Part shown: piece after piece, positions 7,588-34,756 of the stretch
Position numbering within the stretch: the stretch's first letter is position 1
Layout: each line of letters opens with the position of its first letter
Source: Brevibacillus laterosporus
GTDB taxonomy: Bacteria; Bacillota; Bacilli; Brevibacillales; Brevibacillaceae
NCBI GenBank assembly: GCA_007833815.1
Contig: CP033464.1
Coordinates: forward strand, 1,869,501 to 1,933,500
Length of the DNA: 64,000 bases
Direction of reading: 5' to 3'
Position numbers and translations under genes: made by a program
Notes under the pieces: generated by a model
What the model was told of the DNA's origin: nothing
Seen by the model: only the letters and a program-made list of their open reading frames with translations
Database searches by the model: none

Positions 7588-7615
7588 TGAAGTTCTGTTC
7601 ATACGATTAACACAT

Positions 7616-7656
7616 GGGACTCTTCTTGATTTTCTTCGAGAAGAGTCCGATTTTTT
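7616..7656 (+). terminator. Terminator after the GlcD-type gene
   Basis: Inverted repeat GGACTCTTCT / AGAAGAGTCC followed by GATTTTTT, about 30 bases after the dehydrogenase stop: a classic rho-independent terminator. Confidence 0.85.
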
Positions 7657-7716
7657 ACTGTTACTAATAACCAATTTAGTTTGTAGATAAAAAAGAAGTA
7701 TCAAACCTGAATAACA

Positions 7717-7755
7717 AGACAAACGTCAGAATACAAGAGGCTCTGACGTTTGTCT
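7717..7755. repeat. Perfect 14-bp inverted repeat
   Basis: AGACAAACGTCAGA and its exact complement TCTGACGTTTGTCT surround an 11-base loop. There is no T-tract on either side, so it is not a clear terminator. It lies between the GlcD terminator and the minus-strand 50-aa gene and could be an operator or a small-RNA hairpin. Confidence 0.6.
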
Positions 7756-7804
7756 ATATAGAAGTTATTATCGGGACACGATCTGTAAATCGTATTTTAA
7801 TTTC

Positions 7805-7957
7805 CTACGATCTTTTTTTAAATTCTCTAAACCCACGATACACGTTTACTGAAGCTGATACCCCTAATAAAATTAGTACCATTGGGCTTACTTCAGAATT
7901 AAAATATAGCCAACCTAATAAACTAAACAGGACGACAGCTGTCAAAAAAGACGCCAT
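7805..7957 (-). CDS. Small membrane protein of 50 aa, function unknown
   Basis: Short ORF supported by a very good ribosome site (GGAGGGAG ending 8 bases before the ATG on the minus strand). The product starts MASFLTAVVLFSLLGWLYF and has two hydrophobic stretches (about 3-20 and 26-37), ending in a basic tail (REFKKRS). That shape fits a two-helix membrane peptide, such as a small immunity or toxin-like protein, but no family was recognised. It is last in a minus-strand set of small membrane and secreted proteins (7805-9259), suggesting an accessory bacteriocin-like locus. Confidence 0.6.
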   Translation of the reverse strand: MASFLTAVVLFSLLGWLYFNSEVSPMVLILLGVSASVNVYRGFREFKKRS

Positions 7958-8070
7958 AGTATACTCTCCCTCCAGCTATCTTTAAAAGTAAATACTATCT
8001 ACCATAGATCGAGATAACTACTGGTAGCCAAGCTATATCGACATTTACACCTTTACCTTCATTTTTGCTA

Positions 8071-8199
8071 TTAAGTTTTTTTTGCAAATTTTGCGTTTTC
8101 CCATGATATAATTGCTCCAGCAATAGCCGCACTTTGCCCACCTGGAACCAGCCCAGCGATTGCTGCCCCTAATGCCCAATCGGTAGAATACTCCTCATT
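8071..8199 (-). pseudogene. Gly/Ala-rich bacteriocin-like peptide fragment without a start codon
   Basis: An open stretch of 42 codons between stops. It encodes a small amphiphilic sequence with ALGAAIAGLVPGG followed by QSAAIAGAIIS and a charged end (WENAKFAKKT). Gly/Ala-rich hydrophobic peptides of this kind are typical of class II or circular bacteriocins. No ATG, GTG or TTG begins the frame; the only ATG nearby (with GAGGAG overlapping it) is in another frame and runs into a stop after 9 codons. It is either a decayed structural gene or an accidental ORF, about 20 bases downstream of the 82-aa membrane gene. Confidence 0.35.
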
Positions 8200-8221
8200 T
8201 TAGGATTCGGACGTTTGATAG

Positions 8222-8470
8222 CTAAAAAAGCATGAATGTATAAATAATCAATAAAATGAAAATAAATAAGGTAAGAAAAGCTAGAATTTTTTCCTTTCTT
8301 TTATAAAAATTGTACAGTAAATATAAAGACAAGATTATATATAAAGCATGCATTAAGAAAGTCCGAAAAAGAGAGCTAGAATCAATAAGAGGCTGGTTGG
8401 ATGCAATACCATATGAAAGACCAAATGCAGTAAAAATCAATACAATTGTCTTTACTATTTTTGAAATCAT
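8222..8470 (-). CDS. Small integral membrane protein (82 aa), function unknown
   Basis: Predicted start is the ATG at 8470, preceded by AAGGAG at good spacing; an ATG further upstream at 8512 lies inside a hairpin and is unlikely. The protein is almost entirely hydrophobic, with three likely helices: TIVLIFTAFGLSYGIA, FLMHALYIILSLYLLYNF, and ILAFLTLFIFILLIIYTF. A short basic loop (YKRKEKI) separates the last two. It lies downstream of the secreted 239-aa protein on the same strand, so an immunity or accessory role is possible but unproven. Confidence 0.65.
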   Translation of the reverse strand: MISKIVKTIVLIFTAFGLSYGIASNQPLIDSSSLFRTFLMHALYIILSLYLLYNFYKRKEKILAFLTLFIFILLIIYTFMLF

Positions 8471-8491
8471 ACGCAATACTCCTTCCCCCGT

Positions 8492-8541
8492 TGAGAATAA
8501 ATACCATGCCAAATTGACATGGTATTTATTCTCAGTTTTTT
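8492..8541 (+). terminator. Long hairpin between two minus-strand genes
   Basis: GAGAATAAATACCATG pairs with CATGGTATTTATTCTC around a short loop. The T-tract (AGTTTTTT) follows on the plus strand only, so it would terminate plus-strand transcription. On the minus strand it lies between the 239-aa gene and the 82-aa gene and could act as a processing or attenuation hairpin. Confidence 0.65.
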
Positions 8542-9259
8542 ACTCATCTTTTGTTGCAACATTAAAATATGGTTTTTCAGCAAAAAACCAATCGCCTACA
8601 TCATTAAACTGATGATTGAACGCTTTAAAATTTAAAAGTTTAAAATAAACTGAGGTATCTTGGAAGCGATATTGATAGAGTTCTTTCCCTCCCATTCCTG
8701 TTTGAACTTTCCCATTTGTTTTATATTGATTAAATTGAATATGTCCATCCATTGATTTGCCCACAGCTAAAGTAACAAATCCAACAAAAGTAGCCCAATT
8801 TGAAACTACATTAAGTATTTCTTTATGAGAAATGAAAATTCCTCTCTTTCCCCCGATATAACCTCCGACAAGGATAGCTCCCCCAATAGCTGTAGCAATT
8901 TCCCCTATAGAGGTTACTTGTTCATCAAGGTCTATTTTGAATGACATATAATAAACCGGATCATAAATACCCTTTGCCGAAACTCCTTGGGTTTTATCGT
9001 CATTTCTCAATGCTTCATCAAAAAATGGTGTTATTTTAACTTTCTTACCATCCAGAGTTGCAATGTTGGTAGCTGTATCAAAAACCAACGTATGATCCTC
9101 ATTGCCAATTGTAACGGTTTCAACATGTACAGTATTGTTATCCATTTGTTCCGTACTACTATTATTCTTTTCTGCATGGGCATAGCTAGACGGTGCTGAC
9201 AGCATTAATACTGGTACTGTTAAGGCTAACACGCCATTTAAAAATTTTTTAGAGAACAT
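8540..9259 (-). CDS. Secreted protein, possibly geobacillin-26-like antimicrobial protein
   Basis: 239 aa (about 26 kDa) with a clear Sec signal peptide (FLNGVLALTVPVLMLSAPSS, then AHA cleavage). The mature N-terminal part is polar (VHVETVTIGNEDHTLVFD, IATLDGKKVKI). A central Gly-rich hydrophobic segment follows (EIATAIGGAILVGGYIGG, WATFVGFVTLAVG), then a Tyr/Phe-rich C-terminus. The design (secreted, about 26 kDa, hydrophobic core, small membrane protein next door) resembles the geobacillin-26 bacteriocin family as I remember it; this is a weak inference. Ribosome site GAGG lies 7 bases before the ATG. Confidence 0.55.
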   Translation of the reverse strand: MFSKKFLNGVLALTVPVLMLSAPSSYAHAEKNNSSTEQMDNNTVHVETVTIGNEDHTLVFDTATNIATLDGKKVKITPFFDEALRNDDKTQGVSAKGIYDPVYYMSFKIDLDEQVTSIGEIATAIGGAILVGGYIGGKRGIFISHKEILNVVSNWATFVGFVTLAVGKSMDGHIQFNQYKTNGKVQTGMGGKELYQYRFQDTSVYFKLLNFKAFNHQFNDVGDWFFAEKPYFNVATKDE

Positions 9260-9301
9260 ACAAAAACCTCATTTCACTATATATTTTTAAATCCACGAAT
9301 A

Positions 9302-9764
9302 TTAATTTGTCGTGACTTTTTGATAGGTTACTCTTTTATCAAGCAAAATGTCCTTAGCCTCACGTTTCAACTCATGACGACGTTCGGACCATTCTTGTTT
9401 TAATTCTTGTCTTCGTAATATCCTAGCTGGCTCTTTCAATTTCAACTTCTTGATAAGAGTCACCCCATACCAACATATTCATGAAACCAATCCTCCTGAC
9501 GTCTTAATGGAAAAGCTGAAACACGGCTGTCTTTTTCTAAAAGGTTTTTCCGTACAGCTTTATTCTCATATCCGACAACTACTGTTCTAATAAAAAATAT
9601 TTTTTCCCCTTTGAACGCAAGGGCATGATAAACTTGAATGGAGCATTTTCTAGATGCTTGGTATATCGGGGTGTTCCTAAGCTTTCTGAGGGCATATGGG
9701 AACATCCCGTTTTTATTGCCTTCTTAAATTCCTTCTCTGGACATTTATTGTCCCATACTAGCAT
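9302..9764 (-). pseudogene. Frame-broken gene of about 155 codons, function unknown
   Basis: A good ribosome site (AAAGGAG, 7 bases) precedes ATG 9764. The product (MLVWDNKCPEKEFKKAIKTG...) stays in frame to about 9600. The reading then continues one frame back (IFFIRTVVVGYENKAVRKNL...RRQEDWFHEYVGMG, stop at 9460) and again in a third frame from GTG 9463 (VTLIKKLKLKEPARILRRQ..., stop at 9302). The breaks fall at GGGGAAAAAATATTTTTT and GGGG. Together the pieces form one charged protein with no gap or overlap in sense. Options are sequencing error, a true pseudogene, or programmed slippage. No family recognised. Confidence 0.5.
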
Positions 9765-9911
9765 GTGCCAACTCCTTTCTATGAATATTCCTTTTTTGCT
9801 ACCCTCCTTTCTCTGGCAACCACAAAAATGATAAAAACAATGTATTATTCTATATTTTTCATAGATTACCATTTGTTGGCTTAATTATATATCAAGATAG
9901 ACAAAATTCCC

Positions 9912-9942
9912 TAAAAAAAAAGAGAGGATGCCCTCCCTCTCT
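9912..9942 (-). terminator. Terminator of the receptor-peptide operon
   Basis: On the minus strand, AGAGAGG and CCTCTCT flank an 8-base loop and are followed by nine T residues, starting at the stop codon of the peptide gene. A textbook rho-independent terminator that marks the peptide gene as the last gene of the unit. Confidence 0.9.
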
Positions 9943-10075
9943 ACCAACCTTCACCGAAACTATTTGTTGAAGCGGATTGGTTCGTAATTAGACCAGACGT
10001 TGGTACTTCAAAACTCATTCCGATAAAGCCTAAGAAGGACAGAATCATTAGTGAGGATATTAATATCTTTTTCAT
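9941..10075 (-). CDS. Secreted pheromone precursor peptide (Phr/AimP-like), 44 aa
   Basis: A short gene missed by length cut-offs. GGGGG lies 10 bases before the ATG. The product begins MKKILISSLMILSFLGFIG, a Sec-type signal peptide, followed by a short polar tail ending STNSFGEGW. It overlaps the 3' end of the receptor gene by 68 bases in another frame and ends exactly at a strong terminator. Overlap of a tiny exported peptide with the end of a helical-repeat receptor is the hallmark of Rap-Phr, NprR-NprX and AimR-AimP cassettes. The mature signal would be cut from the C-terminal tail. Sequence family not recognised; role inferred from architecture. Confidence 0.72.
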   Translation of the reverse strand: MKKILISSLMILSFLGFIGMSFEVPTSGLITNQSASTNSFGEGW

Positions 10076-11159
10076 TTTGGTTATTCCCCCTTGTCATAAC
10101 GTTAATAAACATTTCTTTGTGTTCTTCCGAAGGATTATACTTATAATGCATAAGAATGATGCTTCTAATTCGCTCTACATTTTTAAACATTAGTGCTAAT
10201 TGCAGGGCCTCTAAATTATAATGGAACCCCTTATCTTTTTCCCCCCTCATTAAATAATACGAGGATAATGCTTGAAATAGCCTTAATCTAAATTTTTGAT
10301 TGAGTTTGTCTGTTTTACAGGATAATTGCTCGATTTCTCTTTCGTATATTTGTAAAAATTCAAGAATGTTTTGGAACATTTCCTTTTGAAGATATGATTC
10401 AAATGCAACAGGTAAAAATGAAAATAATTTTGTCTGATCGGGTGAGATTAATTTAAGGATTTCATCAATAACCTCTAACTTACCCATTTCCACCAAAATC
10501 AGAAGTTCATTCAAGTGAGAGATTTCCTTATAGTAGTCACCATAAACAGCGTATTCTTTAGTAATATGTAAAGCGGTATCAAAATCTTTCGACTCTTTAT
10601 AACTGAAAGATTCATGAAGTAAAGCTTCTGCAATATATTTTTCGTTACGTTCCACTATTGCAAATGTTTTTAACTCTTTTGAGTAATGGAGCAATTTATC
10701 CCATTTTTCTACTACATTATAGAAAGTCAATATTTTATAGTAAGCCTCAAATTTATGTTCCTGTGGAAGTAAAGGGAGATATTCTTGGAGTTGATGTAAC
10801 GTTTCATATCCAGAGACACTAAGGTCTACATCTCTTGCTATGATAAATCGTCTTAAATAGGCAATCGCTAATCGTTCATTCCGTGTTGTACCATTGGCTA
10901 TTACAATGTCATACAAAGGGAGGCTGTAATTTCTTTGATCGGAGGAAAAAATATATTCTGCCATCTTAAAGGTATTATCAAGAAGTCTCTTTCTGTCAGT
11001 ATCCTCGTTGATTAATGCCATAATCTTTTTTGTAATGTCATATCGTTCTACTCTGATACAACTTGTAAAAAATTCCGCTGTTTTAATAGGGGACATTTTT
11101 CCTGATTCATTAAAACAATCTCCCAAATATAATAGATGTAAAGCAAAAAGACCACCCAC
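10008..11159 (-). CDS. RRNPP/AimR-like helical-repeat peptide receptor, apparently lacking its N-terminal HTH
   Basis: 383 aa, all-helical, TPR-like throughout (YLRRFIIARD, FEAYYKILTFYNVVEKWDKL, AEALLHESFSYKESKDFDTAL, ALSSYYLMRGEKDKGFHY). Spacing and composition resemble AimR/Rap/NprR peptide receptors. The frame opens with GTG 11159 directly after an in-frame TGA (11163) and no ribosome site. An in-frame ATG at 11189 lies just upstream of that TGA and only about 20 bases after the chitinase stop. An AimR-type protein would carry about 50 more N-terminal residues with an HTH, so it is probably 5'-truncated, or a Rap-like protein that works without DNA binding. The cognate peptide gene overlaps its 3' end. 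Confidence 0.65.
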   Translation of the reverse strand: MGGLFALHLLYLGDCFNESGKMSPIKTAEFFTSCIRVERYDITKKIMALINEDTDRKRLLDNTFKMAEYIFSSDQRNYSLPLYDIVIANGTTRNERLAIAYLRRFIIARDVDLSVSGYETLHQLQEYLPLLPQEHKFEAYYKILTFYNVVEKWDKLLHYSKELKTFAIVERNEKYIAEALLHESFSYKESKDFDTALHITKEYAVYGDYYKEISHLNELLILVEMGKLEVIDEILKLISPDQTKLFSFLPVAFESYLQKEMFQNILEFLQIYEREIEQLSCKTDKLNQKFRLRLFQALSSYYLMRGEKDKGFHYNLEALQLALMFKNVERIRSIILMHYKYNPSEEHKEMFINVMTRGNNQNEKDINILTNDSVLLRLYRNEF

Positions 11160-11210
11160 TGATCAGTGATCTCTTTGCGCCTGATTCATCCTATTATTTT
11201 TTCGTTATTC

Positions 11211-34524: not shown

Positions 34525-34756
34525 TAACCTCACTTTTTCTGGTGAGGTAGAGGCGCGGTATTTAACAGTCTTTAGCGGAGCGTAAGGAGCTTAGATGCTA
34601 GAGAGAAGGAAATGTCGCCGAAATATGCAGTATCCTTAAATATTGCATATTGGGTCTGCAGTTAAGAGTTGCAGGACTGTCTCAATAAACGACCCGGTTT
34701 ATTGAGGTGAACTATCTCAAATGGGAAAGGCAGAGGATTTAGGTTAGCGGTATATG
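34525..34756 (+). ncRNA. Lysine riboswitch (L box)
   Basis: Conserved L-box elements in order: GGTGAGGTAGAGGCGCGG (34541), an AACAGT / GGAG internal-loop region, AAGGAAATGTCGCCGAA (about 34607), TGGGTCTGCAGT, ACTGTC, and GGTGAACTATCTC (34706). These match the B. subtilis lysC leader as I remember it. TAACCT at 34525 can pair with AGGTTA at 34751 to close P1. A terminator hairpin follows, so lysine binding should switch off the ABC transporter genes downstream, identifying lysine as the likely substrate. Confidence 0.9.

What the first reader, a model, noticed from the sequence alone, without database searches (positions are those of the whole stretch)
9941..11159. Unannotated receptor-peptide quorum-sensing pair (RRNPP / arbitrium-like) with a truncated receptor
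A 44-aa exported peptide gene (signal peptide plus tail ending STNSFGEGW) overlaps by 68 bases the 3' end of a 383-aa helical-repeat receptor and ends at a perfect terminator. This is the genetic signature of Rap-Phr, NprR-NprX and AimR-AimP systems. The receptor resembles AimR in helix order but seems to lack the N-terminal DNA-binding part: its GTG follows an in-frame TGA only 50 bases after the chitinase stop. It may therefore be a Rap-like protein-protein regulator, a decoy that soaks up peptide made for a full-length paralogue, or a decaying cassette. The peptide would be missed by gene callers.
Basis: partly seen in the sequence, partly recalled or inferred. Interest (0 to 1): 0.85.

Follow-up and report, generated by a model that had tools for sequence, protein, structure and literature searches.

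The report
Bacterial chatter genes ahead of secreted proteins
The predicted signal-peptide and receptor pair is real, but the receptor has lost its DNA-binding half, and the pair heads one of many look-alike units in a group of Brevibacillus bacteria, most of them joining a cell-to-cell signalling pair to a shared RNA-like leader and an exchangeable secreted protein.

Summary
Observation confirmed. A 44-aa exported peptide gene (9941-10075, -) overlaps by 68 bases the end of a 383-codon receptor ORF (10008-11159, -) and stops at a terminator. The receptor derives from the Paenibacillaceae AloR family; its nearest relatives (60-81% identical) are about 65-70 residues longer at the N terminus, an HTH. 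That part is gone here: homology ends near window 11,119-11,134 and the GTG lies in a strong terminator-like hairpin behind a chitinase gene. I read the receptor as a recently truncated remnant; peptide and downstream genes look intact.

The larger result lies downstream. Between the pair and a secreted-protein gene (8540-9259) sits an ~89-nt element with 52 copies in 4 of 6 genus genomes, none found in 34 other family genomes. An RRNPP receptor or fragment lies upstream on the same strand in 42 of 52 (opposite strand 0), and a signal-peptide ORF follows in 41 of 52 (opposite strand 1). Its outer helix covaries. Two receptor classes share cargo families; a few cargos are cell-wall hydrolases; copies ride on phages and plasmids. 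Regulation is inferred, not shown. Structure prediction could not be run.

The parts
10008..11159 (-). HTH-less AloR-derived receptor ORF; receptor-homologous part about 10008-11130
   Evidence: 60-81% identical to 8 full-length relatives and 38% to a ninth over the aligned part; no Pfam, PHROG or PDB match for the window protein; homology break
9941..10075 (-). AloP-like exported propeptide, 44 aa
9944..9961 (-). codons of the predicted C-terminal signal SFGEGW
   Evidence: GEGW tail in close relatives; 4-6 tandem IGSGW-like copies in propeptides of 3 of 5 Paenibacillus loci; cleavage inferred
9921..9942 (-). intrinsic terminator after the peptide
9884..9913 (-). conserved promoter-like stretch: TATAAT (9884-9889) and an upstream motif (9896-9913) that is a perfect 6-6-6 inverted repeat in some relatives (my reading)
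   Evidence: present in all 12 loci (13 units) examined; not flagged by the promoter scan; function inferred
9579..9764 (-). small ORF 1 (61 aa, MLVWDNK...) with a Shine-Dalgarno-like site
   Evidence: frame or start broken in 3 of 11 aligned units (L058, L063, L070; my reading)
9496..9585 (-). structured leader element
   Evidence: models R1 and R2; pair counts
9423..9482 (-). small ORF 2 (MNMLVWGDS..., 19 aa); its AGGAGG overlaps the 3' edge of the element
   Evidence: start motif after 19 of 55 elements, an SD-like site before it in 11
8540..9259 (-). secreted cargo protein, 239 aa, signal peptide, no significant Pfam family
   Evidence: no match in the other 5 genus genomes searched
8222..8512 (-). 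small membrane ORF (96 aa, 3 hydrophobic segments), possible immunity partner
   Evidence: function inferred from position and hydrophobicity
11143..11178 (-). strong hairpin with U-rich 3' arm behind the chitinase, terminator-like; its loop contains the receptor's GTG
   Evidence: not listed by the terminator scan; a similar hairpin at G000 5.41 Mb

Best explanation
The pair is a truncated member of a modular unit. In an intact unit an AloR receptor (HTH plus helical repeats) and its exported peptide form a private signalling circuit that switches a conserved promoter just after the peptide's terminator. The transcript starts with a leader holding a small ORF and a structured RNA element, followed by a secreted protein and often a small membrane protein. 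The element probably adds a shared second control (ribosome access or read-through), since it also follows a different receptor class. In the window unit a recombination removed the HTH half and the upstream region and joined the repeat half to a hairpin behind the chitinase, leaving a receptor remnant, an intact peptide gene, leader and cargo. The cargo may now run unregulated, or under the paralogue at 1.60 Mb, whose leader is 91% identical and whose peptide ends SVGEGW against SFGEGW. Shown: sequences, truncation, repetition, strand association, covariation. Inferred: peptide binding, promoter control, RNA function, cargo role (perhaps competition with other bacteria), cross-control.
For: Family: 10 paralogues in the genome with longer frames; relatives with an N-terminal extension that scores as HTH by Pfam in 2 of 3 AloR-type proteins tested (L002, L003; not L009) and in a PDB profile search; profile match to a P. 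polymyxa SC2 plasmid receptor with an overlapping peptide gene, E 5.8e-37. Truncation. Unit: chitinase in G003, G004, G005 is not followed by the receptor; leader block in 9 receptor loci including the window, the others 76-91% identical; element 52 copies in 4 of 6 genus genomes, 4 of 40 family genomes that include those 6; receptor or fragment 42 of 52 same strand, 0 of 52 opposite; signal-peptide ORF 41 of 52 against 1 of 52 opposite, 68 of 556 window anchors, 88 of 844 other anchors, 10 of 45 gene ends. RNA: 12 of 20 pairs with double changes, 47 such cells against 17.6 shuffled, 0 of 500. Cargo: 22 clusters of 41, five holding both receptor classes; M23 2, Amidase_2 1, SLT 1 of 40. Mobility.
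Against: The receptor ORF is still open over ~372 codons, and its lineage changes (13 nonsynonymous, 15 synonymous; 18 and 29 with another outgroup) fit constraint rather than neutral decay (P 1.1e-3 under an assumed 75% nonsynonymous; Fisher against L046 0.83), so it may still work or the truncation is recent. In-frame TTG and ATG follow at codons 12 and 22, the ATG with a close AGGA (my reading), and the scan lists one weak 9/12 promoter-like site at 11221-11193. 10 of 52 elements lack a receptor match, 11 of 52 a recognised secreted ORF. RNAalifold on 20 sequences gave no double changes, folding z-scores are alike on both strands, and A5 was fitted to the tested structure. The three C92-like cargos match NCBIfam LnsA (lipoprotein acylation; L122 below its cut-off) with better E-values than C92, so they may not be wall hydrolases. 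No expression or binding data.
Confidence: 0.68

Rival explanations
1. The truncated receptor is a working HTH-less protein (Rap-like partner regulator or peptide decoy) kept by selection.
For: Open ORF; dN/dS 0.12 and 0.16 against its two closest relatives; branch changes not neutral; break at the HTH-repeat boundary; HTH loss founded the Rap subfamily according to PMC12700828 (passages).
Against: GTG in a hairpin loop, no convincing ribosome site or promoter; no relative with this truncation among those found, though a P. apiarius copy (L068) has another deletion that hits the HTH; no other receptor with the same peptide tail seen in this genome. Several receptors of the second class are also broken here, which looks like common decay.
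Confidence: 0.22
2. The 52-copy element is a repeated palindrome or mobile-element end with no regulatory role, spread passively with the units.
For: Dispersed, clade-restricted; units on phages and plasmids; a 2016 paper called the SecTim467/Sundance segment a putative transposable region (PMC4909266, section 23 read); low G+C, 33.8% for 7590-11134 against 40.1% for the window.
Against: Fixed strand and place between pair and cargo; outer helix keeps pairing through double changes; that paper found no transposase domain in the segment.
Confidence: 0.2
3. The element is a DNA operator bound by a regulator shared by all units.
For: Inner helices show little covariation; both strands fold about equally well.
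Against: Spacer between the arms varies in length from copy to copy, which disturbs helical phasing; outer-helix covariation; in the window's class it lies downstream of the promoter-like stretch.
Confidence: 0.15

Closest known systems
AloR-AloP of Paenibacillus polymyxa (Voichek et al. 2020, PMC7425212; passages read)
   Same: Receptor followed by a small exported peptide gene; many paralogues per genome; Brevibacillus named among carriers; Spo0E-like genes downstream of some systems; paralogue peptides in this genome end HGVGG or HGIGG against the published mature SHGRGG
   Different: Window receptor lacks the HTH that the paper reports for all Alo receptors; the shared leader and exchangeable secreted cargo were not in the passages I read
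RRNPP subfamily/cluster 08 of Paenibacillaceae (PMC10075063, PMC12700828; passages read)
   Same: The second receptor class found here fits it: DPG peptides, HTH plus repeats, on B. laterosporus LMG 15441 plasmid pBRLA33 next to an AloR-type gene
   Different: The window receptor is not of this class: L134 against profile A1 gives E 0.039, probability 1.3%
AimR-AimP arbitrium
   Same: Same structural clan as AloR according to PMC12700828 (passages); some Brevibacillus units ride on phages
   Different: The window locus did not match the seven phage proteins tested; no AimR chain among 17 PDB profile matches; peptide GEGW rather than DPG
Putative transposable region of phages SecTim467, Jenst and Sundance (PMC4909266, section 23 read)
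   Same: In SecTim467 and Sundance the same unit: receptor, Spo0E-like gene and, by my searches, the element and a secreted protein
   Different: In that section it was seen as a transposon; the peptide, the RNA element and the modular layout are not mentioned there

Membership tests
AloR-AloP | Receptor homologous to Paenibacillaceae AloR | tested here: met
   the P. polymyxa SC2 protein is a homologue, not one of the paper's numbered AloRs
[quoted passage not shown]
   extension present in close relatives, HTH by Pfam in L002 and L003 but not L009; absent in the window
AloR-AloP | Adjacent small exported propeptide | tested here: met
   export judged from the hydrophobic leader only
AloR-AloP | TPR-like helical repeats | tested here: inconclusive
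   no Pfam repeat match for the window protein; structure prediction unavailable (last try)
AloR-AloP | Peptide binds receptor and changes transcription | not testable with these tools
   needs bench work
AimR-AimP (arbitrium) | Sequence relation to AimR receptors | tested here: not met
   phmmer of the window receptor finds 0 PDB chains, profile A1 finds 17, none named AimR; fold not tested
AimR-AimP (arbitrium) | Phage lysogeny context | tested here: not met
   flanks are a chitinase and an FAD-linked oxidase-like gene (names from my reading); no match to seven phage proteins
Rap-Phr | HTH-less receptor within the Rap lineage | tested here: not met
   closest relatives are the longer AloR-type proteins
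RRNPP subfamily 08 | DPG motif in the peptide | tested here: not met
   window tail is SFGEGW; DPG occurs in the other class
Known Rfam RNA families (leader element) | Match to a curated family | tested here: not met
   no match at E up to 1 in window 9200-10000; none at the element in 6 loci at E up to 0.5

The most novel reading that the evidence does not exclude
The Brevibacillus laterosporus group carries a previously undescribed cis-acting structured RNA that serves as a common output stage for dozens of private peptide-signalling circuits. Circuits of two receptor classes plug into the same leader, and interchangeable secreted proteins with membrane partners plug in behind it. The units spread on phages and plasmids and sometimes lose their receptor while keeping signal and cargo, as in the window.
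Probability: 0.5. Interest if true: 0.85.

Novelty: new variant of a known kind. Interest (0 to 1): 0.72.

Why it matters
RRNPP systems are known to control neighbouring genes, but here one genome appears to hold about thirty receptor loci, some broken (my grouping of matches), and seventeen copies of one leader element, 15 of them with a receptor or fragment upstream (counted). If the leader is a control RNA, it would be a common adaptor between many private signals and many effectors, spread by phages and plasmids. That makes testable how signalling codes and secreted weapons or public goods are recombined, and what happens when a unit loses its receptor.

Tried and rejected
AimR, Rap and NprR membership: no sequence support. 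Small ORF 1 as the conserved function of the leader: frame or start broken in 3 of 11 aligned units. The unit as a clean insertion beside the chitinase: flanks match, but the other genomes carry different DNA there. The chitinase-side hairpin as part of a known RNA: no Rfam match in L062. Folding energy as proof of RNA: both strands alike. Covariation of the inner helices alone was weak (7 double-change cells against 1.8, 1 of 500). Structure prediction and the fold searches that depend on it were not possible. Strain-level conservation of the truncation could not be tested: I had one genome per species plus plasmid, phage and viral collections.

Weak points. The signal-peptide rule is home-made (L171, and L139 where a membrane ORF was scored, are doubtful positives; L124, L126 and L134 likely misses); one peptide call (L164) is doubtful. 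Receptor matches use BLASTP 1e-4 with 11 queries (six AloR-type, five of the other class), several of which lie in these same loci; some matches are fragments (L139, L157, L173) or far away (L133 1.9 kb, L163 2.3 kb). The opposite-strand signal-peptide control used approximate element positions. Genome searches with the RNA model scored only 150 or 109 first-look candidates per genome, so copies may be missed. Leaving out the 18 of 52 loci used to build the model, 25 of 34 have a receptor match and 27 of 34 a secreted ORF (counted by hand). A6 holds 40 of the 41 cargos (L171 dropped). The 55 rows are 51 of the 52 copies (no hit in L173; the copies of L163 and L165 enter through L145 and L142) plus two in L046 and one each in L174 and L175. 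In one search only 2 of 7 loci matched the script's anchor.

Full report
OBSERVATION. The peptide has a hydrophobic leader and a Shine-Dalgarno-like AGGGGG before its ATG.

FAMILY. The window receptor has no Pfam, PHROG or PDB match and one sub-threshold NCBIfam hit. Its own genome gives 11 matches including itself; the ten paralogues have open frames of 440-504 aa. Of 6 genus genomes including the own one, 5 have matches. The closest chromosomal relative (G004, L012) is 82% identical, has the N-terminal extension, and its peptide shares the last 15 residues. A B. halotolerans plasmid copy is 85.8% identical and annotated as an HTH regulator. By Pfam, HTH is found in L002 and L003 but not in L009, the three AloR-type proteins tested; the family profile also meets HTH regulators in the PDB. 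The profile of ten proteins matches a Paenibacillus polymyxa SC2 plasmid receptor over 372 columns (E 5.8e-37), itself followed by an overlapping peptide gene ending FGEGG. Voichek et al. (PMC7425212, passages) describe AloR-AloP in P. polymyxa, name Brevibacillus among carriers and state that all Alo receptors have an N-terminal HTH. So the window receptor is AloR-derived but fails the HTH criterion.

SIGNAL. Related peptides end in GEGW (window SFGEGW, paralogue SVGEGW), GGGW, HGVGG or HGIGG, though some paralogues have other tails or no recognised peptide. In 3 of 5 Paenibacillus loci the propeptide has four to six tandem IGSGW-like copies, which points to the C-terminal hexapeptide or so as the mature signal. 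Processing is inferred.

TRUNCATION. DNA similarity to full-length genes ends around 11,119-11,134, at the HTH-repeat boundary in the protein alignment. Upstream lies a 14-bp hairpin (11143-11178, -20 kcal/mol) whose loop holds the GTG; its U-rich 3' arm makes me call it terminator-like, but the scan did not list it. A similar hairpin occurs at 5.41 Mb. The promoter scan found 18 sites against 18.9 expected, one weak site at 11221-11193. In G003, G004 and G005 the same chitinase (87-90% identical) is followed by other DNA. The remaining ORF is intact and its substitutions resemble those of full-length genes (dN/dS 0.12 and 0.16 to its two closest relatives; branch 13 N and 15 S). I conclude a recent truncation, most likely a remnant, with about a one in five chance that it still functions. 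Another relative with a damaged HTH is L068 of Paenibacillus apiarius, and several second-class receptors in this genome are broken.

LEADER. Window 9335-9920, whole or in part, aligns with the stretch behind 7 of 7 related receptor loci compared (L050, L053-L058). Window 9500-9905 has 9 long matches, itself included, the other 8 at 76-91%, plus shorter ones. The stretch holds a TATAAT with a conserved upstream motif in all 12 loci examined (the scan does not list it), a small ORF, and an element of about 89 nt. A covariance model of 20 copies finds 52 copies at E up to 0.05 in 4 of 6 genus genomes: G000 17, G003 15, G004 11, G005 9. Of 40 family genomes, which include those 6, only those 4 have it at E up to 0.01. 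Only part of the candidates were scored per genome (150 and 109).

ASSOCIATION. I fetched about 7 kb around each copy where contig ends allowed. A receptor or fragment of one of two classes lies upstream on the same strand in 42 of 52, an exported peptide ORF was recognised in 36, a signal-peptide ORF starts within 900 bases downstream in 41, and a membrane ORF behind that in 21. On the opposite strand receptors occur in 0 of 52 and signal-peptide ORFs in 1 of 52. Background anchors give 68 of 556, 88 of 844 and, at gene ends, 10 of 45. A Spo0E-like ORF lies somewhere in 30 of the 52 stretches. In four loci (L149, L167, L169, L170) the next gene is an AloR-type receptor rather than a secreted protein.

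RNA EVIDENCE. With the outer helix included, 55 copies give 88.8% paired cells, 12 of 20 pairs with double changes (all 7 outer pairs), and 47 double-change cells against 17.6 in shuffles (0 of 500) and 12-26 in slid controls. The inner helices alone are weaker, RNAalifold on the 20 seeds saw no double change, and energy z-scores do not separate the strands (mean -1.5 and -1.6). The alignment was fitted to the structure, so this is good but not final support. No Rfam family matches at the element.

CARGO. The 41 secreted ORFs fall into 22 clusters; five clusters hold members behind both receptor classes. Of 40 scanned against Pfam: C92-like 3, M23 2, Amidase_2 1, SLT 1, M10 1, astacin 1, DUF5050 1; most have none. 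The C92-like ones match NCBIfam LnsA, a lipoprotein-acylation family, with better E-values though below its cut-off for L122, so only the M23, amidase and transglycosylase matches are clear wall-hydrolase candidates. Several cargos match phage families, some of unknown function (PHROGs). The window cargo has no match in the other five genus genomes. A role in competition with other bacteria is inference.

SECOND CLASS AND MOBILITY. The other class has XRE-type HTH domains in 3 of 3 tested and mostly DPG or NPG peptides. LMG 15441 plasmid pBRLA33, whose 32,617-base length equals contig G003:C2, carries it beside an AloR-type gene; PMC10075063 (passage) reports AloR plus cluster 8 for plasmids of that strain, and PMC12700828 (passages) gives DPG as widespread in subfamily 08. 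I therefore take the class as subfamily 08. Profile comparison with the AloR class is not significant. Units with the element occur on viral contigs and in phages Sundance and SecTim467, where PMC4909266 (section 23 read) called the segment a putative transposable region. The element was not found in the Paenibacillus, B. dissolubilis and phage Emery loci searched, nor at a second-class locus of the B. halotolerans plasmid.

NOVELTY. AloR-AloP and RRNPP control of neighbours are known. I found no description of the shared leader element or the modular cargo in the papers searched (open-licence PMC only; listings, passages and one section read, not whole texts).

Noticed in passing
L064, L066, L067 (Paenibacillus profundus, P. 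apiarius): AloR-like receptors followed by propeptides with four to six tandem IGSGW-like copies.
   Followed up: partly
L048 4119-4250 (phage Emery gp61): Peptide behind an AloR-like phage gene carries two copies of HGGIGW.
   Followed up: no
L149, L167, L169, L170: A second-class pair, then the element, then an AloR-type gene: possible signalling cascade.
   Followed up: no
L046 6001-9960 (CP139434.1): Leader, cargo and membrane ORF duplicated in tandem; the second peptide copy looks broken and ends GEGC.
   Followed up: partly
G000 1.97, 5.24, 2.60, 0.29 and 0.44 Mb: Several receptors of the second class are broken or partial in this genome.
   Followed up: no
L005 and L006 (G000 4.12 and 4.46 Mb): Two near-identical AloR-type loci whose peptide holds DAGERP twice.
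   Followed up: no
window 34540-34722 (+): Lysine riboswitch, 106.9 bits.
   Followed up: no
13 of the 52 loci L122-L173: Phage lysin, holin, repressor or integrase-like genes beside the unit.
   Followed up: partly
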